The notes beneath the pieces were generated by a model that was not told the origin of the DNA, ran no database searches, and saw only the letters and a list, made by a program, of their open reading frames with translations. A DNA stretch of 64,000 bases from Ctenosaura bakeri (lineage: Eukaryota; Chordata; Lepidosauria; Squamata; Iguanidae). Of the stretch, positions 7,897 to 63,523 are shown piece after piece. The translations under genes were made by a program, and so were the position numbers. The stretch is taken from the NCBI GenBank assembly GCA_948474755.1, contig CAOLHI010001251.1, positions 347,324 to 411,323 on the forward strand. The letters run 5' to 3'. Every line of letters starts with the position of its first letter. Within the stretch, counting starts at the first letter, position 1.

Positions 7897-8640
7897 ACAG
7901 AGTCATAGAATCATGGAGCTGGAAGAGACCACAGGAGCCATCAAGTCCGACCCCCTGCCATGCAGGGAGACACATCAAAGCACTCCCAACAGATGGCCAT
8001 CCTGCCTCTTCTTAAAAACCTCCAAACAACCATACTCCGAGGCAGCAGATTCCACTGCCGAATAGCTCTGACCGTCAGGAACTTCTTCCTGAGGTTTAAG
8101 TAGAATCTCTTTTCCTGCAGTTTGAATCCATTGCTCCTTGTCCTAGTCTCTGGAGCAGCAGAAAACAAGCCCGCTCCCTCCTCAACATGACATCCCTTCA
8201 AATATTTAAACATGGCTATCATGTCCCCTCATAATCTTCTCTTCTGCAGACTAAACATAGCCTGCTACCTAAGCTGCTCCTCATAGGGCATGGTTTCCAG
8301 ACCCTTCACCATTTTGGTCGCTCTCCTCTGGACACGTTCCAGCTTGTCAATATCCTTCTTTAAATGAGGTGCCCAGAACTGGACACAGTATTCCAGATGA
8401 GATCTAACCAAAGCAGAATAGAGTGGTACCATTACCTCCCTTGACCTAGACACCATACTCCTATTGATGCAACTAAGAATTGCATTTGCTTTCTTGGCTG
8501 CTGCATCACACTGCTGACTCATGTCCAGCCTGTGGTCCACCAAGACTCCTAGATCCCTTTCACATGTACTGTGAGTCTGCGAGTCCCAATCTTTGATAAC
8601 AGACTGACTTGGAAGTCTTTCCTTCACAGCATCACTGTAA
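7897..8640 (-). pseudogene. CR1-type LINE 3' half with reverse-transcriptase remnant
   Basis: This is the longest CR1 copy in the window. Reading the minus strand, the frame holds [18 protein letters not shown], then [20 protein letters not shown], then [16 protein letters not shown], and after a frame break RKKFLTVRAIRQWNLLP. These are the thumb and C-terminal parts of the CR1 reverse transcriptase. The 3' end (left) has CATAGAATCATGG, the complement of the ATTCTATG tail. It is 5'-truncated and frame-disrupted, so it should not be called a host gene even though one frame stays open for about 150 codons. Confidence 0.85.
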
Positions 8641-9372
8641 GTTGTAGTTGACTTAGCAGCAATTGAGAACAGCAAGATATAGTCTGGATCAGAGTGCAAT
8701 TCCATGATGCAGAGCAACACTGGCTCTGCTTACAGATCTCCCTTCTGTGAGTTAATCCTTGCCTGAATCTTCTAAGCTAAGGGTAGGCAACCTGGGGTCC
8801 CCCAGATATTTTAAACTAGCACTGACAATAGTTAACAGCAAAAATCAGCTGGGTACTAAACTGTCTTCCTTTGTTCTAAATCATGGGCGGGAAAGCACAG
8901 CTTGTGAGGTGCATGTGTCCCTGGAACCTCACTTTTGCACCCACCAAAAGCTGTGTGGTAGTCCACCAAACTACACAACCTGTAAATTTTAAAAAATGCT
9001 TTCTCAGAAATTTCATGCCTTAAAATTGAACCAAAGAGACTAAAAGCACATGTGAATTCATTGGTTTGGCTTCTTCCCATTCCTGTATGGAAGAATGGTG
9101 ACTGGGAAGGGGAAAATGTTATGCTACTCTGTTCTTTGCAATGCTACAAGGGTTCCAGGCTGATTTGATGCAAAAGTTCAGGTCTTGGCAAAGTAAAGCC
9201 AAGCAAGAAAACATCCATGTTTTGTCAACAAAGTGGAGTCAGATAAAGTAGGACAAAGCTCAGTATATAAAGGAAAGCAATCTCAAGCAAAAACCAGGCA
9301 AGAATTCAGGAGGGACTTCACCATGGGAAGCACAGAAACAAGGCTCAAATAATGCTTCTTCAAAGGAACAGG

Positions 9373-14004: not shown

Positions 14005-14581
14005 GGCCCTTTTCGCACTGAGGCTTCTAGTGCAAGCGGGGGAGGCCGGCAAGCGCAAGAAGGCTCCTCCGGGAGGCTGCCGCTTCCCCCTCCTTCCTTC
14101 CGCAGGCGAAGGAACAAGCGGGGAAGCGGCACCGAAGGAGGCTTGCCGTGCAAGCCGCCCTCCCCCGTGAGAAGCGGGAGACCTCGCGCCGGATTCCTCC
14201 CCCCGCGCGCGCCGGATTCCTCCCCCCGTGTGTGCGAAGCGGGTGGCATTGCTTCCCCCGCGCCCGCGCGCGAAGTGGGCGTCGCGCCCGTCGCGCTAGC
14301 TCCCCACCCCGCTCCTTCCTTCCGCAGGGGTGGAGGGAAGGAAGCGCGGCCCGGCCGGCTCCCGGAGGCTCCGCACGAAAGGTAAGTGCGGGTGGGCGCC
14401 AGGAGCGTTGCGCGAGTGCGGGGTGATTTTCGCTTGGACGCGAAAATCAAAAAACCCGCGCTCGCGCCGCTTCAGCCCCATGAGCTGGGCGGAAGTGGGA
14501 GTGCGTCGTGCGGAGCGACGCTCCCACTCCCGCGAGGCTCACGGGGCTGTCGCGCGAGCAAAGGCCCGTGCGAAAAGGGCC
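14005..14581 (+). mobile_element. GC-rich non-autonomous DNA transposon, copy 1
   Basis: A 577-bp, strongly CpG-rich block bounded by GGCCCTTTTCGCAC on the left and GTGCGAAAAGGGCC on the right, with a perfect 3-bp target duplication CTA (14002-14004 and 14582-14584). The host sequence around it is AT-rich. Copy 2 at 54215-54825 is its reverse complement in overall order; they share GGGAGTGCGTCGTGCGGAGC and the GATTTTCGC..GCGAAAATC palindrome. Several open frames through it exist on both strands, but they are a by-product of GC content, not genes. The 3-bp duplication would fit PIF/Harbinger-type elements; the superfamily is inference. Confidence 0.85.
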
Positions 14582-20634: not shown

Positions 20635-21090
20635 GGCCATTTCCGCACAAGCTTAAAGAAACGGTGCAGAGCATTCTCCAGGGAGGACGTCTGCACCTGG
20701 GAGCGGACTGGGTCAGACCTACTTAGTGTAGTTCTGCACGTCAGCCCGCTCCAGAACGACCCGAAGTGGTCATCCAGTGTGCTTTTGAAAGACCACTTGA
20801 AACAGGTCTTTCAAAAGTACGGAGCGCGCCACTCCGTGCCTGTGCTCCGGTGCAGATTTGCAGGCTCGCACCAGTGCAAGCCTGCAATCTGCCGGGGGCG
20901 GGCTTTAGGCTGGCGAGCTTCAGTGGTTGTTGGAGAGCCTCAACCAACTGGAAGCCACCATTTTCGTCCCTGAAGCAGTGCGGAGCGGCAGCCACGCACT
21001 GCTCCAGACCAGCCTGGACCCAAGCATGGAGCCAAGAAGTCCGGTAAGTACCGGCATGGGGCGATTCCCTCACTACGTGCGGAAATGGCC
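20635..21090. mobile_element. 456-bp non-autonomous relative of the palindromic MITE family
   Basis: Ends are GGCCATTTCCGCACAAGC and CGTGCGGAAATGGCC, with flanks TAC and TAT as a probable 3-bp duplication with one change. The interior is GC-rich and differs from the short palindromes and from the 577/611-bp elements, with an internal inverted pair GTGCTTTTGAAAGACC / GGTCTTTCAAAAGTAC. An open frame across it is not a gene. Confidence 0.8.
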
Positions 21091-28786: not shown

Positions 28787-29009
28787 GGGCCCATTCATAC
28801 TACAATTATAGCACTGTTATTCTACTTTAATTGCCCTGGTTTCAAGCTATGAAATATTGGGATGTCTAGTTTGGTGAGACAGTACAGCACTCTGACTGAG
28901 AATTTTATATATCCCTCTCTAAACTGCAACTCACACAATTCCATGGGATGGCATCTTTGCAGTTAACATGGAATTATAGTATTATAACTGTGTAGTGTGT
29001 ATAGGCCAC
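28787..29009. repeat. Old relative of the palindromic MITE family
   Basis: Left GGGCCCATTCATACTACAAT, right TATAACTGTGTAGTGTGTATAGGCC. The interior TGAGAATTTTATATATCCCT corresponds to the '202-bp class' centre in decayed form. Confidence 0.6.
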
Positions 29010-30789: not shown

Positions 30790-31275
30790 TGCTTCAACAC
30801 TTCACAGGTGAAAACCAGAACGTACCTGACCAAACAACATCAAACTGTGGTCAGAATGACAAAAGTTATTGCTGAGGAAGAACATACAAGAGGCTGCAGC
30901 AGATTTGCTTTTGCCTGAGTCTACAAGGAAGAGCGAGATTCTCCCTCCTCCACTCCTCTCCCTTCTCCTGAGTTAACTGACTGCAAACAACTTTTGCACT
31001 TTCAACAGGCCATTTCCATGCTAGACTGTTATAGTGCTATTATTCCACTTTCAACATCCTATGGAATCCTGGGGTTTGCAAACCCCAGGATTCCTTAGGA
31101 TGTTGAAAGTGGAATAATAGCACTATAACAGTCTGGTGTGGAATAGAGGTCAGTTTGCACCAATGGCAGCAAGCTGCAGACAAAGACAGAAAGCGTGAGG
31201 AGGAGAGAAAAATTGGGACATTTTTAAAGCAGTTGAAAAAGAGGAATGCACAGAGGAATAACTGGGACTGTTGGA
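30790..31275 (+). repeat. Dispersed repeat Y, copy 2, split by a MITE
   Basis: The parts 30790-31008 and 31151-31275 align in order to 20235-20618. A palindromic MITE fills the gap, so copy 1 serves as the empty-site control. Confidence 0.75.
31009..31150. mobile_element. Palindromic MITE nested in repeat Y
   Basis: A 142-bp near-perfect palindrome. The arms contain GTTATAGTGCTATTATTCCA and its inverse, meeting at GGTTTGCAAACC with no unique centre. CAG precedes it (31006-31008) and follows it (31151-31153). It is the most compact form of the family here. Confidence 0.85.
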
Positions 31276-42257: not shown

Positions 42258-42458
42258 CATCATTTCCGCACTACACTATTAAATGCTATTATTCCACCTC
42301 CAACATCCAATGGAATCCTGGGGATTGCAGTTTAAGTCAGGGCATTTAGAACTCTCAGCCAGAGAGCTCTTGGGCCTCAGTAAAGTACAAACCCCAGAAG
42401 TCCACAGGATGTTGAAAATGGAATAATAACACTATAACAGTGTAGTGTAGAAATGGCC
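42258..42458. mobile_element. Palindromic MITE, 202-bp class
   Basis: A 201-bp element flanked by perfect 3-bp TTA repeats (42255-42257 and 42459-42461). The terminus is CATCATTTCCGCACTACAC; the other end is TGTAGTGTAGAAATGGCC. The unique centre contains CTCAGCCAGAGAGCTCTTGG. Confidence 0.85.
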
Positions 42459-44435: not shown

Positions 44436-44923
44436 CGGAGCTTTCCAGACTTTTCATGTTCGTGACACGTTTTTTAGACATGTATCATTTCACGACACAG
44501 GCCATTTCCGCACTAGCCGGTTATAGCGCTTTGATTCCACTTTCAACATCCTACGGGATCCTGGAGTTTGCAGTTTCGGGAGGGGACAGTCACCCCTCCC
44601 GAAACTGCAAACCCCAGGATTCCATAGGATGTTGAAAGTGGAATCAAAGCACTATAACAGGCTAGTGCGGAAATGGCCACAGTAATTTCAGTTTTACTAG
44701 CACACTGGAGGTTAAACTAACCCCTTATAAGAGATACAGACACATACATAAATTGTAATAATAAAATATATGGGGATACAACATATCTCATGAAAATCTT
44801 TCATATATATTTTAAAAATATATGATTTATAAATAGTAACATACATTTTCAAGATTGTAGGCAATACACCTACACACTTCAGGTGGCACACTAACGTCAT
44901 GGCACACTGTTTGGAAAGCCCTG
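44436..44923. mobile_element. hAT (Charlie-like) non-autonomous element
   Basis: Ends CGGAGCTTTCCAGAC and, in reverse, CAGGGCTTTCCAAAC. The 8-bp target duplication is CTCTAGAG / TTCTAGAG (7 of 8), matching the nTCTAGAn target typical of Charlie-type hATs. It is itself interrupted by a younger palindromic MITE at 44500-44678. Confidence 0.8.
44500..44678. mobile_element. Palindromic MITE, 180-bp class
   Basis: A 179-bp near-perfect palindrome flanked by ACA (44497-44499, 44679-44681). Ends are GGCCATTTCCGCACTAGCC and GGCTAGTGCGGAAATGGCC. The centre is GGGAGGGGACAGTCACCCCTCCC. It lies inside the hAT element. Confidence 0.92.
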
Positions 44924-54214: not shown

Positions 54215-54825
54215 GGCCCTTTTCGCACGGGCCTTTTCTCGCGCGACAGCCCTGTGAGCCTCGCGGGAGTGGGAGCGTCGCTCCGCACGACGCACTCCCA
54301 CTTCTGCCGGGCTCACGGGGCTGAAGCGGCGCGAGCGCGGGTTTTTTGATTTTCGCTTTGAAGCGAAAATCACCAGCGCTCGTGCAACGCTCCCGGCGCC
54401 CGCGCACACTTACCTCTTGTGCAGAGCGTCGGGGAGCCGGCCGGGTCGCGCTTCCTTCCCTCCGCCCCTGCGGAAGAAAGGGACGGAGCGGGGCGCTAGC
54501 GCGATGGACGCGACACATCCTGCTTCGCGCGCGCGCGTGGGCCAGACGCAACAAGCTCCTTTCTCGCGCGCGCGGGGGGGGGATGGACGGGACAGGCTCC
54601 TTTCTCGCGCGTGCGGGGGGATGGACGGGACAGGCTCCTTTCTCGCGCACGCGGGGGGGGGATGGACGGACACGCGAGCCGCCTCCGCCTCCGGGAGGCT
54701 GCTGCTTCCCCGCTCGTTCCTTCGCCTGCAGAAGGAAGGAGGGGGAAGCGGCAGCCTCCCGGAGAAGGCTTCTTGCGCGAGCCGCTGTCCTCCGTCGCGC
54801 GAGCGCCGGCGCTGTGAAAAGGGCC
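54215..54825 (-). mobile_element. GC-rich non-autonomous DNA transposon, copy 2
   Basis: A 611-bp CpG-dense block with ends GGCCCTTTTCGCAC and GCTGTGAAAAGGGCC, flanked by ATG on both sides (54212-54214, 54826-54828). It is inverted relative to copy 1 at 14005. It contains the palindrome GATTTTCGCTTTGAAGCGAAAATC and a minisatellite. Frames of up to about 290 codons run through it on the minus strand and others on the plus strand. They are low-complexity Arg/Pro/Ala-rich and present on both strands, so I do not call a gene. Confidence 0.88.
54555..54670 (+). repeat. GC-rich minisatellite inside the 611-bp element
   Basis: Three units of about 41, 38 and 37 bp start GCTCCTTTCTCGCGCG(C/T)GCG or close variants and include GGATGGACGG. 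G runs of 6-9 bp vary between units. Confidence 0.85.
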
Positions 54826-55484
54826 ATGGTCTCCTGCAGATTTTCTGTCCAGTACTGTATTTTTATTAGGGGTGGGCCAACTGAATCTGCGAATCCTTGA
54901 ATCCTGCACAACGATTCAAGATTCATGAATCCGAATCCCTGGGCCAAAACAGGCAAACTTAATCTTTTGAATCTGCCAACCAAATCCCAGTTGGAGACTG
55001 GGACACCTGAAAACCTAGGAGACCAGACACAAGGGGGAGACGGCAAGTAGGTGAGTTTTTCCCTTGGAGTAATAATGGCCTTTGCTAACAATTTCAGAAA
55101 TTACATCTGGAGTTGTATTCTAATATATTTAAATTGAACATTTAATATTTAAGTTCAGCACTTAACTGAAAGCTATAGGCTTGAGATTTCAAGGACAGCT
55201 GAAAGATTCATTTGCATGGCTCCCTTGCAAAGCTCTTCCATACACAATTCTGGGTTTGTAGTTTTACAAGGTGTCACAGCCTTCTCTGCCAGAATGTGCT
55301 GCTGCATCATCAAACAACAAACCCTAGGATGCCGTAAGGAGTTATGCAAAGAAAAGCCAGTTTTGACCTGGACTAGCTGTGTATGTGGCCCTGTTTACAC
55401 AGGCAGGAAAATGTGGGATTAATCTACATTCTCCTGCCTGTGTATAAAAAGCCTTCGTGTCATTTTCAATCTGGGGAGATTCTG

Positions 55485-55592
55485 AGGCAAAACTATGACA
55501 ATTGTCCTGGCCAGATTTCTTCAGAGGGAGGTTTCCTTTGCCTAGGCTTTTGCTAAGGCTGAAAGAGTGTGTCTTTCCCAAGTTTATCCTTC
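55485..55592 (-). repeat. CORE-type SINE fragment, antisense
   Basis: CCAGATTTCTTCAGAGGGAG then GCTGAAAGAGTGTGTCTTTC is the SINE core; the tRNA end is missing. Confidence 0.6.
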
Positions 55593-56211
55593 TTTCCCTT
55601 GCTTTTTGAACACTTAAAAAAAAAGGATTCAAAAGATTTGAGATTCATGGATTCCCAGAACCTTCCAGGGATTCAGATCTGGATTCAGATAAATTCTGGA
55701 TTCCTCTCAATCCTAGTTTTTATATATGCAAATACAGGTATTCCAGAATCTGAAAAAATCCACAATATGAAATACCTCTGGCCCCAAGCATTTTGGATAG
55801 TGAATACTCAACTCGTAGCATAATTATCTTTCACTTACGAAGGCCTGCTAGCTCCAATGTCTCTGAAATGCTACAGAATGTATTGTTGTTTTTATTCCAA
55901 CAAGCTCTTGTGGCTTCACCTCCAGAAGTTCAGCACACACACTACTAGGGACCCGAGCTGAGCGGCTCTGCTCCCATGTTTTTAACACCAGCCTTTAACA
56001 ACTGACTCCTCATGAACTGAGCATATTTGGCCTGCCCAGTAAGGGATCACCAACCATTGTGTACCATTCATGCCATGAGCTGAGATCAGAGATAACCTTT
56101 AACTTAGGGGACTTCTAATGTGGAAGGCAAGACTGACAGACAGGTCATTATGAATTTTGTATAGTTGCATGTTATCTTTTCACAACACTGTAAAAACACA
56201 GAAAATAATAA

Positions 56212-57618: not shown

Positions 57619-57798
57619 GGTCATTTCCGCACTAGCCTGTTATAGCGCGATGGTTCCACTTTCAACCTCCTCTGGAATCCTGGGGTTTGCAGTTTCGGGA
57701 GGGGCCGGCTGGCCCCTCCCGAAACTGCAAACCCCAGGATTCCAGAGGAGGTTGAAAGTGGAACCATCGCGCTATAACAGGCTAGTGTGGAAATGGCC
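57619..57798. mobile_element. Palindromic MITE, 180-bp class
   Basis: A 180-bp element: two 88-bp arms around a 4-base loop (GGCT), with only about two mismatches, flanked by TAG (57616-57618, 57799-57801). It carries GCGATGGTTCC on the left and its exact inverse on the right, unlike the family-typical GCTATTATTCC. Confidence 0.95.
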
Positions 57799-57833
57799 TA
57801 GGACTAAGGGTAATGAATAAAATAAGGGACAGA

Positions 57834-58283
57834 GCTTGTTCTTGTTGTTATTGTGTACCTTCAAGTCTTTCCCAGCCTATGGTAATCCTATGGTGAACTT
57901 ATCACGGGGTTTTCTTGGCAAGATTTGTTCAGAGGGAGATTGTGTTCCTCTGAGGCTGAGAAAATGTGACTTGCCCAAACTCACCCAGTGGGTTTCCACG
58001 GCTGGCCAGGAAGTCAAACCCTGGTGTCCAGAGTCACAGGCCATTTCCGCATTGCACTGTTGTAGCGCTATTATTCCACTATCAACCTCCCAGAGAATCC
58101 TGGCGTTTGCAGTTTAGGGAGGGGCATGTAGACTTCTCAGCCAGAGAACTCTTTGGCCTCAGCAAACTACAAATTCCAGAATTCCCCAGGATGCTGAAAG
58201 TGGAATAAGAGCACTATAACAGTGTAGTGCGGAAATGGCCATAGTCTATTGCTCACACCACTGCACCATGCTGCCTCTTTAGG
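57834..58283 (-). repeat. CORE-type SINE, antisense, interrupted by a MITE
   Basis: 57834-58038 (GTTCTTGTTGTTATTGTGTA to GTGTCCAGAGTC) resumes at 58241 (TAGTCTATTGCTCACACCAC to CATGCTGCCTCT). Removing the MITE restores the usual SINE order. Confidence 0.8.
58039..58240. mobile_element. Palindromic MITE, 202-bp class, nested in SINE
   Basis: A 202-bp element with GGCCATTTCCGCATTGCACTG and CAGTGTAGTGCGGAAATGGCC ends. Flanks ACA / ATA (2 of 3). The unique centre contains CTCAGCCAGAGAACTCTTTG. Confidence 0.9.
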
Positions 58284-58437
58284 GACAGGGCTCCTATCCC
58301 CTTAATAGCCTTGCAGAGGTGGAACTTTCAGCTGGCGTTGCTTTTCCTGCAAGCAACACCTGTTGAACTTCCTTTTTTAAACACAGCTACTAAAATCACA
58401 GGAGCCCTGGTCCTTATTTCACTTGGCAACACTAACC
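58275..58437. repeat. Palindromic MITE family B, copy 3
   Basis: GACAGGGCTCCTATCCCCTT on the left and GGAGCCCTGGTCCTTATTTC on the right with diverged arms. GCGTTGCTTTTCCTGCAAGC lies in the centre. Confidence 0.55.
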
Positions 58438-58500
58438 CCATCCTCCTCCCACTTGGGGCATCCTCTGAGCGCTCTAGGATCGCAGGCAGAAGGAGAACAG

Positions 58501-58680
58501 GGCTATTTCCACACTACACTCTTATAGCGTGATTATTCCACTTTCAACATCCTATGGAACCCTAGGGTTTGCAGTTTCGGGAGGGGCTGGCTGGCCCCTC
58601 CCAAAACTGCAAACCCCAGGATTCCATAGGAGGTTGAAAGTGGAATAATTGCGTTATAAGAGTGTAGTGCGGAAATAGTC
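58501..58680. mobile_element. Palindromic MITE, 180-bp class (first of a back-to-back pair)
   Basis: A 180-bp element flanked by CAG (58498-58500 and 58681-58683). Both arms carry the copy-specific changes GGCTATT/AATAGTC and CTCTTAT/ATAAGAG. Confidence 0.93.
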
Positions 58681-58683
58681 CAG

Positions 58684-58884
58684 GGCCATTTCTGCACTAC
58701 GCTGTTAAAGTGCTATTATTCCACTTTCACTACCCTGTGGAATTCTGGGGTTTGCAGTTTAGGGAGGGCATTTAGAATTCTCAGCCAGAGTGTTCTTTGG
58801 CCTCAGGAAACTACAAACCCCAGAGTTCCAGAGGATGTTGAAAGTGGAATAATAGCACTATTACAGTGTAGTGTGGAAATGGCC
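58684..58884. mobile_element. Palindromic MITE, 202-bp class (second of the pair)
   Basis: A 201-bp element flanked by CAG (58681-58683 and 58885-58887). It shares its left CAG with the preceding element. Ends GGCCATTTCTGCACTACGC and GTGTAGTGTGGAAATGGCC. Confidence 0.93.
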
Positions 58885-59637
58885 CAGGACAGGGCTCCTG
58901 TGCCATTCACAAATGCACAAATCTGGGGGTGTCAGGAGGCATCTCCTGCATGTAGAGGAGCAATGTCCTTTGTCATGTGGTCGCCACATCATGCATCCCT
59001 CTGCACTTTCCCTGCCCACTGGGATCGTGGCGTAGTTTCTCTGCTGGTGAAGAGGAGCCCCTGATCCCCAACCTATTTGCAAATGATCTCCTTCTTTACG
59101 AAAACCAACCAACCCTGCAGTTCACCTTTCCTGCGCATGCCTTCTTTGCAAGGTCTTTCCAGGCTGGTTTTGAGAATAAGCGTGCAAAGTATCCAGGACT
59201 CTCATTCTGACCCCTCCCATCAGAAGAGCCCATTGCAATCAATGGCTCTATGCGAGCCTTAAGCCTCCACGGGCTCCCGTCAAAACCTATCGGATTCCGG
59301 TATAAGAACAAACAGCGCCACCTAGTGGCGTTCAACCTCTACCGCAGTCCAACCCAACGTTCTGCTTATTTCCCCTCCCTGTCAGTCATGAAGCCCGGAA
59401 AGGGAAAGGGCTTTCTGCGCATGTGCTATAGCGTGGTTTGTTCCCTGGGTGATTTGAAAACAAACAGTGCTGCTGAAAACTTTGTTTTGGCCCAGAGATG
59501 GGTGCAGTGAATCACTTGAAATGTATAGTGTGATTAGCAAATGGAACTTTATCAATAAAGGAGGAAAACCTTTTAAGATTTCTGTCGCTCAAAATAAAAG
59601 TGAGCTGTTTCCACGGTGGCAATTTAGAGAAGACTCA
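58885..59637. promoter_or_regulatory. Non-repetitive CpG-containing patch, candidate regulatory region
   Basis: This is the only sizeable unique block in the MITE cluster. It has scattered CpGs and, between 59120 and 59440, two NRF1-like sites (CCTGCGCATGCC, TCTGCGCATGTGC), an ETS-like CCCGGAAAG and a CTCF-like site. It could be an upstream alternative promoter of FAM13A or an enhancer/insulator; no exon with a clear product was recognised. Open frames here look like chance. Confidence 0.35.
59313..59332 (-). promoter_or_regulatory. CTCF-like binding motif
   Basis: The minus strand reads AACGCCACTAGGTGGCGCTG, closely following the vertebrate CTCF core (CCASYAGRKGGCGCT form). Sequence match only; binding is not shown. 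Confidence 0.5.
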
Positions 59638-59816
59638 GGACGTTTCCGCACTGGCCTGTTATAGCGCGATGATTCCACTTTCAACCTCCTCTGGCATCCT
59701 GGGGTTTGCAGTTTCGGGAGGGGCCGGGGGCCCCTCCCGAAACTGCAAACCCCAGGATTCCAGAGGAGGTTGAAAGTGGAATCATCGCGCTATAACACGC
59801 CAGTGTGGAAACAGCC
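59638..59816. mobile_element. Palindromic MITE, 180-bp class
   Basis: A 179-bp element flanked by TCA (59635-59637, 59817-59819). The arms carry GCGCGATGATTCC and the inverse GGAATCATCGCGC. Its closest relative here is the copy at 57619. Confidence 0.94.
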
Positions 59817-59839
59817 TCAGTGATCCATAGCCTTCAGTG

Positions 59840-60302
59840 GATGGTAGTCAAGGGTGTAGCTTCTCATTGTTCAGTGCCTTGGTGTTGTTTCTGCCTCAGG
59901 CAATCCTTAGACGAAGCTACCTTGGAGTTTTCTTGGCAAGATTTGTTTGGAGGGGGTTTTGCCTCCTCTTCCTCTGGGGCTGAGAGAGTGTGACTTGCCC
60001 AAGGCCACTTAGTGGATTTCCATGGCTCAGCAGGGATTTGAATCCTAGGGCCTTTCTGCACTACACTGTTATAGTGCTCTTATTCCACTTTCAACCTCCT
60101 GTGGAATTCTGGGGTTTGTAATTTAAGGAGGCCCAAGAGCTCTCTGGCTGAGAATTCTAAATGCTGGCCCCTAAACTGCAAACCCCAGGATTCCAGAGGA
60201 TACTGAAAGTGGAATAATAGCACTATAACAGTGTAGTGCGGAAATTCCTCTAGTCTCCAGAGTTGTAGGCTAAAGCACAAACCACTACCCCAAGCTGTCT
60301 CC
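59840..60302 (-). repeat. CORE-type SINE, antisense, interrupted by a MITE
   Basis: 59840-60048 ends GGATTTGAATCCTAG and resumes at 60251 with TAGTCTCCAGAGTTGTAGGC. The B box and following bases are restored when the MITE and one TAG are removed. Confidence 0.82.
60049..60250. mobile_element. Palindromic MITE, 202-bp class, nested in SINE
   Basis: A 202-bp element flanked by TAG (60046-60048, 60251-60253). Ends GGCCTTTCTGCACTACACTG and CAGTGTAGTGCGGAAATTCC. Confidence 0.92.
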
Positions 60303-60639
60303 AAGGGTGTAGAGGCAGGAGGGCAAAATGAAGCCATTTCCCCCCACCTTTGGTTCCCTCCTGTGAATTTTTCCTTCAGTCCTCAAATTTCTGGCACTGC
60401 ATAGGATGAGACATTGAAAATTGTTTAATCATGTAAAGCTTTCAGATTTCATATATTTATATTTCCTTGACAACATTGTCTGCCTCCTTTTTGGACACCT
60501 AAATTATTTCTGAATGCTCGACTGAAGTTTTAAACTACTGCAATGCCGACAGGCCTTCCCAGACCAGCATTTCCATCACCTCTCATCTATTGCCTTGCTG
60601 CTTGCTAACAGTAATTGATGGATTGTTAATTGCTGTGTA

Positions 60640-60788
60640 TTTTAAGGGGTTGGTTTAGGTGGGTTGGTGGGTGGGGAGGATTGGGTATGTTTTTAATGTC
60701 TTTTAATGTATTTTAGTGTATAATATATTTCATGCTGTTGGCTGCCTCGATCCATGTGGAGAGGCGGGATACAAATAAATATTATTAC

Positions 60789-60831
<43 letters not shown>

Positions 60832-60835
60832 CAGA
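60640..60835 (+). repeat. LINE-type 3' tail with TTA microsatellite
   Basis: GGCTGCCTCGATCCATGTGG then AGAGGCGGGATACAAATAAA followed by about 15 ATT units. Same 3' end as the Sauria SINE at 51050, as expected for a LINE/SINE partner pair. Confidence 0.65.
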
Positions 60836-61491
60836 GGGACTAAAGGAAAATTCCATTAGGGGGCACAATTCTTATTGGGGGAGCAATGCCGTCTCCCCAT
60901 TATCCCTGTAAAATATTTAGGGTGAGACATTCACTGTTACAGTCCTAAGTTCTTTCCAAGAGCATCCACTTTTTAAATGCAATCCCTGTGATAGCTTTGT
61001 GTAGGGAGGGATGGCTAGCTAGCAACTGATGGGAAAGGGCTTGAGATTCTGGTTAAATTGCATACATTAATATGGAGTGGGGAACTCGTGGCCTTTGGAG
61101 ATGCTGATGCAACTCCCCCTGCCTTAATTTTTTTTTACAATTTTGATGATTGGAAAAAAGAAAAATCCAAACCTGAATGCTACACATTACTGGTTGGTGG
61201 TGCAAAAAGAAATCGTTTGCTAACTCATGACTTCAACACCTCCAACAGAACAGGAGGTGTAGTGTGGGACAGCTCTTGAATTCTGCGACATTCCTTCTCT
61301 ACCATTTAGTGAGGTCATATCCCCATAACTATAAAAGTAATTAAAAAGTTCTGGCTACTTCCCAAAAGGGGTGAAATTATCCCTTGTTGAGTTAACATAT
61401 TTCTATCTTCATTGCAGGCATAAGGAGAAAGAATGCTCTAGCCCTCTCTGTCAGCCAAAGGGGGGAAAAAGAGTCCCTTGAACAAGACTAT

Positions 61492-61693
61492 GACCATTTC
61501 CGCACTACACTGTTATAGTGCTATTGTTCCACTTTCAACCTCCTATGGAATCTTGGGGTTTGCAGTTTAGGGAGGGGCATTGAGCATTCTCAGCCAGATA
61601 GCTCTTTGGCCTCCCTAAACTACAAACCCCAGAATTCCACAGGAGGTTGAAAGTGGAATAATAACACTATAACAGTATAGTGTGGAAAGGGCC
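61492..61693. mobile_element. Palindromic MITE, 202-bp class
   Basis: A 202-bp element flanked by TAT (61489-61491, 61694-61696). Ends GACCATTTCCGCACTACAC and TATAGTGTGGAAAGGGCC. Confidence 0.9.
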
Positions 61694-61918
61694 TATAAGT
61701 CAGACTAACAGTAGGGGAAGCACTGAAAATAGCTGCAGTGGCTGTAGGATTCCAGGAATTTTAATTCAAAAATAACTTTTCCAAATAGCCTGTCCAGACC
61801 TGAATTTAAACGCCTGCTTATATACCCTGCCATCAGATTTGAAGAACTGATCTCTCTCCTCTTTTTCTCCCTTCTCTTCTCCTTTGCTTCTGTTTTCATT
61901 TCATCATCAGCCCACTGA

Positions 61919-62124
61919 GGCTATTTCTGCACTACACTTTGAACATCCTATGGAATCCTGGGGTTTGCAGTTTAGGGAAGGTGTTACCCTGTATCAGGGT
62001 AAAAAAGGGCACTTAAAATTCTCAGCCAGGGAGCTCTTTGGTCTCAGTAAACGACAAACCTCAGAATTCCACAGGATGTTGAAAGTGGAATCACAGCACC
62101 ATAACAGTGTGATAGGGAAATGGC
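61919..62124. mobile_element. Palindromic MITE, 202-bp class, internally altered
   Basis: Begins GGCTATTTCTGCACTACACT and runs directly into TTGAACATCC, lacking the usual 'GTTATAGTGCTATTATTCCA' of the left arm. The right arm is complete. A short duplicated piece (TGTTACCCTGTATCAGGG) enlarges the centre. Target duplication not resolved. Confidence 0.8.
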
Positions 62125-63245
62125 CCAAGAAAGCATATCTGTGTTGTTGTGGTTGGTGCAGCTGTTATTGCCTAGGGGAGAATAATGGTCTGAAAAGTGG
62201 AATTAAAATGCAATAAATGAATATTACCTCCCTGACTTCCCCTGTTATTTTTCCTGCATCAGATTTAAGACTGGATGTTCCCCTGAGGGCAGGAGGTGGT
62301 CCCCTTGTATTTCCTATATTCATCATAGATACATAAACTGATGTGACAAAATGAAGATCACCTGAGAATCCAGGAAGTCTTAGGTCCATGAGAACACACT
62401 CTTTTAGATGCAAGGCTTCATTTTGAATGCCTTCCAGTCTTCTATGATTCTATGATTTTACATGTATAAAAGGTGGCCGAGGAACAAGTTGCACACTGTG
62501 GTTTATATGCATACAGTTCTTCCTGACAGGCAGCCAATTCAAATATGCTAAAATCATATCTGGTGCAGTCTTTAAATCCACTTTTCTTTTCTCATTTAAC
62601 TCGGTGAGGCTTCTGTGACGAGTTCTGTTTAAAGATTTGTTTTTCTCATTTTCTTTTACCTGGGCAGTCTCCTAGCTGCTCTTGTGAAAGGATGCAGCCC
62701 AAGCAGGGCTGTACCACATGGTAGGTTTGTATGCTTGCAGTAAGTAGGCACCGTGGCAGCTGGGCTGCGAACTGGTATGAGTTCATGACATTTTGCTGGC
62801 AGGAATATAGAAACTGTGACAGGGTGAATCAAAGAATATAAAAAGCTTTTAACAAATATCCTGTGAGACAGTTCGGTCTTGTCAAACCCCCGGTGGGAAT
62901 AATTATGAGCTTTGTGAATAGGCAGACAGGGCAGTGCATCTCAGCTGAGTTTTACTTTCATTATTATTAAACTACTGAAGAGGAACTATATTATGAGGAG
63001 AGATAAATGCTGATAGCTGACAGCAGTACTATGCATTAATAAGAGGCTGTCTAGGGACAAAGCACTCTGGAACCCTGGGGGAAAAGAGTGAGAACAATAG
63101 GAAGACTTTGCCCCTAAATTTCTATGTTCATCCCCATACAAGTACAAAGCAAGAATCCAGGAGTCCTTGAGATTTTTCAAAGGAATATATTCATTTATCA
63201 TAACGTACTAGATTTACATTCCACTTCCCCTCCCCCCTCAAATAT

Positions 63246-63246
63246 T

Positions 63247-63298
<52 letters not shown>
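63246..63298 (+). repeat. (ATC)n microsatellite
   Basis: About 17 uninterrupted ATC/TCA units. Confidence 0.97.
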
Positions 63299-63300
<2 letters not shown>

Positions 63301-63341
63301 GGAATTATGACAACATGGTGGAGTTGTGCCCTCAAAACATA

Positions 63342-63523
63342 GGCCATTTCTGCACTAGACTGTTATAGTGCTATTATTCCACTTTCAACATCCTATGGAA
63401 TCCTGGGGTTTGCAGTTTAGAGAGGGGCCTTTGAGGCCCCTCCGGAAACTGCAAACCCCAGGATTGCATAAGATGTTGAAAGTGGAATAATAGCACTATA
63501 AACAGTCTTGTGTGGAAATGGTA
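63342..63523. mobile_element. Palindromic MITE, 180-bp class
   Basis: A 182-bp element with probable ATA duplication (63339-63341, 63524-63526). The arms hold GTTATAGTGCTATTATTCCA and its inverse around GGGGCCTTTGAGGCCCCTCC. Confidence 0.88.

What the first reader, a model, noticed from the sequence alone, without database searches (positions are those of the whole stretch)
57619..63523. Family of palindromic MITEs with 3-bp target duplications, in two size classes
At least ten copies share termini near GGCCATTTCCGCAC and a perfect or near-perfect 3-bp duplication. Duplications: TTA (42258), ACA (44500), TAG (57619, 60049), CAG (58501, 58684), TCA (59638), TAT (61492), ATA (63342), probably CAG at 31009. 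One class is about 180 bp with two long arms and a 4-20 bp centre. The other is about 202 bp with a conserved unique centre around CTCAGCCAGAGAGCTCTTTGG. A 3-bp duplication excludes hAT (8 bp) and Tc1/mariner (TA) and fits PIF/Harbinger, but the triplets are not only TWA/CWG. No transposase is visible, so the driver is unknown.
Basis: partly seen in the sequence, partly recalled or inferred. Interest (0 to 1): 0.75.

Follow-up and report, generated by a model that had tools for sequence, protein, structure and literature searches.

The report
Harbinger-type miniature transposons in a reptile
The repeats are real: they are short, hairpin-like jumping DNA pieces that lack their own enzyme and appear to be moved by Harbinger-type transposons present in the same reptile genome, and their two mirror-image halves seem to have been copied onto each other again and again.

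Summary
In the window 9 of 10 copies with good tips have an exact 3-bp duplication; in a 335-kb sample 43 of 79 do, against 0-5 at shifted boundaries, 0 of 8 bp and 2 with TA on both sides. The tip GGCCATTTCCGCAC occurs 57,285 times in the 1.9-Gb genome (control 0). Insertion sites read RAC|WNW|GTY, nearest to the published NuwaII (C|TNA|G) branch of the PIF/Harbinger (PHIS) superfamily. Of the 150 best DDE_Tnp_4 hits, 79 have a listed Myb_DNA-bind_4 hit within 8 kb, all downstream on the opposite strand. 12 of 19 sampled DDE loci show 5' tips matching the MITE tip at 11-12 of 14. No transposase-bearing element with the exact MITE tip was found among them. The two size classes are related: the 180-bp consensus is a perfect palindrome made of the left arm of the 202-bp class, and variants in the 180-bp class sit mostly on both arms (one site genome-wide: both 2,126, one 618; expected 260 and 4,350). 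This suggests repeated arm-to-arm copying. New member of a known kind.

The parts
42258..42458 (.). 202-class MITE, TSD TTA
   Evidence: arm HMM pair and exact 3-bp TSD
44500..44678 (.). 180-class MITE, TSD ACA
57619..57798 (.). 180-class MITE, TSD TAG
58039..58240 (.). 202-class MITE, flanks ACA/ATA (2 of 3 match)
58501..58680 (.). 180-class MITE, TSD CAG
58684..58884 (.). 202-class MITE, TSD CAG, abutting the previous copy and sharing the middle CAG
59638..59816 (.). 180-class MITE, TSD TCA
60048..60249 (.). 202-class MITE, TSD CTA (reader: TAG at 60049)
61492..61693 (.). 202-class MITE, TSD TAT
61919..62125 (.). degenerate copy of about 202-class length with rearranged left arm, no TSD
63342..63523 (.). 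180-class MITE, TSD ATA
31008..31149 (.). truncated 142-bp copy, no exact TSD
20635..21090 (.). family B: 456-bp element with the same 14-bp tip at both ends and an unrelated interior; flanks TAC/TAT (2 of 3). Relatives with exact TSDs: L014 4257-4693 TTA (both tips exact), L021 2806-3261 TAT (one tip exact, the other one base off)
14005..14581 (.). family C: 577-bp element, both tips GGCCCTTTTCGCAC (identical to the 5' tip at transposase loci L045 and L047), TSD CTA
54215..54825 (.). family C: 611-bp element, left tip GGCCCTTTTCGCAC, right tip GGCCCTTTTCACAG, TSD ATG

Best explanation
These are non-autonomous cut-and-paste transposons (MITEs) of the PIF/Harbinger (PHIS) superfamily in a squamate genome. 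A Harbinger transposase, with its Myb-type partner, encoded by other elements would bind the GGCCATTTCCGCAC ends and insert them into palindromic RAC|WNW|GTY sites, duplicating the central 3 bp (duplication and target shown; trans-mobilisation inferred). The 202-bp class is a quasi-palindrome with two slightly different arms and a unique centre. The 180-bp class arose from it when the left arm was copied onto the right side and the centre was lost, giving a perfect palindrome (shown by class consensuses; the event and its direction are inferred). Later substitutions were again spread from one arm to the other in lineages that multiplied, most likely by snap-back template switching at the hairpin during replication or repair (inferred). 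The confidence given is for the Harbinger assignment; I put repeated arm copying at about 0.65 and template switching as its route at about 0.5.
For: 3-bp TSD in 43 of 79 copies vs 0-5 at nine shifted boundaries, 0 of 8 bp; of the other 36, 25 match at two of three bases, and among the window's own copies, not chosen by tip, 9 of 10 have it; cross-pair control 102 of 2,756. Target: C at -1 in 31 and G at +1 in 33 of 43. PF13359 DDE_Tnp_4: 150 scored of 632 candidates, best E 1.1e-31, rings in 1 of 14 control genomes. Myb_DNA-bind_4: 150 scored of 649, 0 of 14 controls. 79 of the 150 listed DDE hits have a listed Myb hit within 8 kb, all 79 downstream on the opposite strand, 0.19 expected if scattered evenly. 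5' tips GGCCCTTTTCNCAC or GGCCCTTTCCACAC (L043 and L050 one base off) at 12 of 19 sampled DDE loci, 11-12 of 14 with the MITE tip; homology between the closer pairs begins at or within 6 bp of these tips. Arms: 180-class (44 copies) within-copy distance 0.083 vs 0.142 for random pairing, 0 of 2,000 shuffles; transversions only, positions 1-50, 0.024 vs 0.083, 0 of 5,000; 30 of 44 copies symmetric at 11 sites scored as purine/pyrimidine, 17 distinct symmetric haplotypes; left and right arm sister leaves in 17 of 44. Consensus 180 = 88/88 palindrome; positions 51-86 match 202-left 35 of 36, 202-right 28 of 36. Genome-wide at arm position 44 (exact 13-mers around it on both arms): both arms 2,126, one arm 312+306, neither 20,063; independence predicts 260 and 4,350.
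Against: No transposase-bearing element with the exact MITE tip was found, but only 19 of 150 listed DDE hits (of 632 candidates) were looked at, and 7 of these 19 showed no clear tip in the stretch fetched. 3' tips and TSDs of the autonomous elements were not seen. 71 of 150 DDE hits have no listed Myb hit within 8 kb (both lists are capped). Families B and C have no match longer than 60 bp at E<=1e-6 to the transposase loci, and the A-arm hits above E 1e-16 there are MITE copies. Only 9 of 43 TSDs are strictly TNA. Alleles seen in a single sampled copy are never on both arms (0 of 24 in the 180 class, 0 of 37 in the 202 class), and a third allele at position 44 is on both arms in only 2 copies, so copying after insertion is not frequent. 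36 of 79 copies lack an exact TSD.
Confidence: 0.9

Rival explanations
1. The MITEs belong to another superfamily that also makes 3-bp duplications (recalled: Zator, Academ, some CACTA), and the Harbinger elements are unrelated bystanders.
For: No element with the exact tip and a transposase was found in the 19 loci looked at; the MITE tip differs from the sampled Harbinger tips at 2-3 of 14 positions. Other transposase superfamilies were not searched for.
Against: A match of 11 or more of 14 at a fixed place has a chance of about 4e-5. Short elements in the same window carry the exact tip seen at Harbinger loci L045/L047 (family C); family B has the exact MITE tip, and its L014 and L021 copies go on with GGGG as Harbinger L032 does. 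The C|...|G target is a published feature of a Harbinger branch.
Confidence: 0.06
2. Arm concordance of the 180 class is only descent: one symmetric founder, no repeated arm copying.
For: Alleles private to one sampled copy are not symmetric; a third allele at position 44 is symmetric in only 2 copies.
Against: 17 distinct symmetric haplotypes over 11 transversion sites among 30 symmetric copies: each derived state must have reached both arms, so one founder is not enough (recombination between copies could make some of the combinations). The 202 class also shows concordance in its outer 50 bp (0 and 2 of 2,000 shuffles) but not in its inner 30 bp.
Confidence: 0.2
3. Concordance reflects selection for matched ends rather than copying: only elements with two equal transposase-binding arms transpose, so matched double changes survive.
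For: The outer 25 bp are concordant even in the 202 class.
Against: In the 180 class concordance extends over all three parts of the 80-bp arm, including positions 44, 49 and 54, and the right arm of the 180 class is a copy of the left arm of the 202 class, which selection on binding sites does not explain.
Confidence: 0.12

Closest known systems
NuwaII group of the PHIS (PIF/Harbinger-ISL2EU-Spy) superfamily (PMC4482050; passages and section 8 read)
   Same: 3-bp duplication with C before and G after it; short terminal repeats starting GG; DDE transposase plus Myb/SANT protein
   Different: The central triplet is relaxed (T or A at both ends more often than strict TNA: 9 of 43); group membership of the transposase was not tested by phylogeny
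Harbinger-Snek of sea kraits (PMC8437027; passages read)
   Same: Large Harbinger expansion in a squamate, transposase and Myb-like protein, many short non-autonomous variants keeping terminal motifs and target-site duplications
   Different: Here several Harbinger families with different tips were sampled; the best protein relatives of one of them are an amphisbaenian and lizards (Rhineura floridana, 58%). Sequences were not compared with Harbinger-Snek itself
Tourist-type MITEs such as mPing of rice (recalled; PMC2836001 seen only in a search listing)
   Same: Small non-autonomous Harbinger derivatives with 3-bp duplications, mobilised in trans by two proteins
   Different: Duplications there are TTA/TAA (recalled); here the element is an almost perfect palindrome and the triplet is freer
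Quasi-palindrome template-switch mutation (PMC3820800; start of the abstract in the listing)
   Different: Described there in yeast; here inferred over 80-bp arms in thousands of transposon copies

Membership tests
PIF/Harbinger (PHIS) superfamily | 3-bp target-site duplication | tested here: met
   43 of 79 copies, 0-5 at shifted boundaries
PIF/Harbinger (PHIS) superfamily | DDE transposase of DDE_Tnp_4 type in elements with the same tips | tested here: inconclusive
   Such genes exist with 5' tips at 11-12 of 14 in 12 of 19 sampled loci; an element with the exact MITE tip was not found
PIF/Harbinger (PHIS) superfamily | Second ORF with a Myb/SANT domain in the autonomous elements | tested here: met
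   79 of 150 listed DDE hits have a listed Myb_DNA-bind_4 hit within 8 kb, all convergent; Myb_DNA-bind_5 gave only 9 hits, on contigs that hold no listed DDE hit
PIF/Harbinger group in the narrow sense | TWA duplication | tested here: not met
   4 of 43
NuwaI | CWG duplication | tested here: not met
   3 of 43
NuwaII | C|TNA|G target | tested here: inconclusive
   C 31 of 43, G 33 of 43, both 24 of 43; strict TNA 9 of 43
NuwaII | Terminal repeat of 13-46 bp, starting GG in most families | tested here: inconclusive
   Starts GG; family B shares 14-18 bp at its ends, but the 180/202 class has inverted arms of 80 bp or more
NuwaII | Transposase falls in the NuwaII clade | not tested
   no reference sequences at hand
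hAT | 8-bp duplication | tested here: not met
   0 of 79
Tc1/mariner | TA duplication | tested here: not met
   TA on both sides in 2 of 79; any 2-bp identity in 10 of 79, 5 of which also have a 3-bp duplication

The most novel reading that the evidence does not exclude
A palindromic MITE whose two arms evolve in concert: the amplifying lineages were repeatedly remade by copying one arm onto the other, so that fold-back copying, not just internal deletion, creates and diversifies a MITE family of more than twenty thousand copies.
Probability: 0.6. Interest if true: 0.55.

Novelty: new member of a known kind. Interest (0 to 1): 0.42.

Why it matters
It assigns a very abundant squamate repeat, which I did not find described in the open papers searched, to a transposon superfamily and gives a concrete target rule (RAC|WNW|GTY). 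It also offers a natural experiment with more than twenty thousand copies on how perfect palindromes arise and are kept symmetric in a vertebrate genome.

Tried and rejected
Chance pairing of flanks was rejected by shifted-boundary and cross-pair controls. Age-correlated CpG decay as the cause of arm concordance was rejected by counting transversions only. L035, a DDE gene lying between two MITE copies, looked at first like an autonomous element with MITE ends; I set this aside because the flanking copies are separate MITEs, one of 119 bp and one of 179 bp, each with both tips. Four exact strings of the tip were not found in the open papers held. Viral contigs gave 3 exact 16-base matches that were not examined. 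A pattern for a Harbinger-like continuation after the exact MITE tip, one mismatch allowed, gave 1,057 matches; the 25 exact ones, all listed, look like the end of family B, and so do most of the 100 listed. Frequent arm conversion after insertion was considered and is not supported. The one-arm count of a third allele at position 44 was asked nine times and never answered, so the figure of 2 copies on both arms has no one-arm partner. Random regions for an unbiased copy density were drawn but never fetched, so no genome-wide copy number beyond the exact-pattern counts is claimed.
Full report
The window lies in a 1.905-Gb genome of 8,006 contigs. The best named relatives of one of its Harbinger transposases (the DDE exon of L032) are squamates (Rhineura floridana 58%, then Eublepharis, Sceloporus, Heteronotia, Gekko, Podarcis, Anolis), so the host is most likely a squamate; the species was not determined.

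Observation. A profile of the MITE arm finds 28 hits at E<1e-6 in the window; 20 Markov-simulated windows give none at E<1e-3. Of ten window copies with good tips nine have an exact 3-bp duplication. In the larger sample (80 sequences, 335 kb, mostly chosen for exact tips) 86 copies have both ends, 79 with good tips, and 43 of these have an exact 3-bp duplication (window 9 of 10, L009-L028 19 of 38, L032-L050 2 of 5, L051-L090 13 of 26); shifted boundaries give 0-5, 8-bp duplications 0, TA on both sides 2. Another 25 of the 79 match at two of three bases. The exact 14-bp tip occurs 57,285 times in the genome, the reversed control 0 times.

Target. Among the 43, C precedes the duplication in 31 and G follows it in 33. 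The triplet starts with T or A in 34 and ends with A or T in 35; TWA accounts for 4, CWG for 3, TNA for 9. With the outer bases the site reads RAC|WNW|GTY (30 sites read on both strands). In the PHIS classification this is nearest to NuwaII, C|TNA|G (PMC4482050, section 8), but looser.

Driver. PF13359 rings in 150 scored of 632 candidates, most without a stop inside the match. PF13837 Myb_DNA-bind_4 rings in 150 scored of 649; PF13873 Myb_DNA-bind_5 in 9. 79 of the 150 listed DDE hits have a listed Myb_DNA-bind_4 hit within 8 kb, all 79 downstream and convergent, against 0.19 expected for evenly scattered hits; 71 have none in the capped list. At 19 sampled DDE loci, 12 show a 5' tip of the form GGCCCTTTTCNCAC or GGCCCTTTCCACAC upstream of the gene (L043 and L050 are one base off), and homology between the closer pairs starts at or within 6 bp of that tip. 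In the other seven no clear tip was seen in the stretch fetched. The tips match the MITE tip at 11 or 12 of 14. The same window holds a 577-bp element with GGCCCTTTTCGCAC at both ends and TSD CTA (14005-14581), a 611-bp relative with that tip at one end and TSD ATG (54215-54825), and a 456-bp element with exactly the MITE tip at both ends (20635-21090, flanks TAC/TAT), whose relatives in L014 and L021 have TSDs TTA and TAT. So short element families with both tip types sit in one genome beside Harbinger genes. Not shown: an autonomous element with the exact MITE tip, or the 3' tip and TSD of any autonomous element. Families B and C share no longer match with the transposase loci.

Two size classes. 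Class consensuses (27 copies of 202, 38 of 180): the 202-bp arms differ from each other (79 of 85) around a unique centre; the 180-bp consensus is an 88/88 palindrome, and its positions 51-86 match the left 202 arm at 35 of 36 and the right one at 28 of 36. The 180 class thus looks like a fold-back of the left arm. Inside the 180 class (44 copies) the two arms of one copy are more alike than arms paired at random (0.083 vs 0.142, 0 of 2,000 shuffles), also for transversions alone over positions 1-50 (0.024 vs 0.083, 0 of 5,000); in the tree of arms the two arms of a copy are sister leaves in 17 of 44. The 202 class (28 copies) shows no concordance overall (516 of 2,000) and its inner 30 bp are more different than random (2,000 of 2,000), but its outer 50 bp are concordant (0 and 2 of 2,000; transversions 2 of 5,000). 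At 11 transversion sites 30 of 44 copies of the 180 class are symmetric, with 17 distinct symmetric haplotypes. Genome-wide, among copies with exact 13-mers around it, the T>G variant at arm position 44 is on both arms in 2,126, on one arm in 618, on neither in 20,063; independence predicts 260 and 4,350. Against frequent conversion after insertion: alleles seen in one sampled copy are never symmetric (0 of 24 and 0 of 37), and T>A is on both arms in 2 copies (its one-arm count did not complete). My reading is that arm copying occurred repeatedly in the lineages that founded subfamilies. Template switching at imperfect palindromes is a described mutation type in yeast and E. coli (PMC3820800, PMC7202029: starts of abstracts in the listing) and is the proposed mechanism.

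Verdict. A real, very abundant Harbinger-type MITE family; ordinary in kind, with an informative target rule and an unusual, testable palindrome history. Searches for prior description: four exact tip strings in the open papers (none); papers on Harbinger, MITEs and lizards or squamates (titles and abstract starts of 20 of 112, 25 of 115 and 20 of 188 papers) showed none that names this family. Most subscription papers, Repbase and Dfam were not available.

Noticed in passing
window 58501-58884: Two MITEs of different size class abut, with CAG before, between and after: one appears to have inserted at the target duplication of the other.
   Followed up: partly
window 57840-58036 and 59880-60048: MIR-like SINE sequence (recalled, not searched) precedes and continues after the MITEs at 58039 and 60048, which seem to sit inside SINE copies; SINE text with AGTC motifs may offer preferred targets.
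   Followed up: no
L035 2351-3772 (-): Single-exon Harbinger-like gene of 474 aa (PF13359 E 2.8e-29) whose residues at the first two catalytic D positions appear changed (VVGTTH, LGGPAYPL; motif comparison by eye): possibly a domesticated transposase.
   Followed up: no
window 55387-55600: 214-bp stretch starting GGCCCTGTTTACACAGG, 89% identical to L019 7778-7573; only the start looks Harbinger-like.
   Followed up: no
window 28787-29008 and L014 4895-5125: Elements with tips near GGGYCCATTCACA; the middle of the window copy resembles 202-bp-class copies (67-77% over 61-151 bp). The L014 copy has TCAG on both sides.
   Followed up: no
window 8265-8720 (-): 151-aa open frame resembling a non-LTR reverse transcriptase fragment (by eye, recalled).
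   Followed up: no
L036 1043-1221 and L038 1054-1219: MITE copies lie within or beside Harbinger transposase genes; the one in L036 sits between two open stretches of the gene.
   Followed up: no
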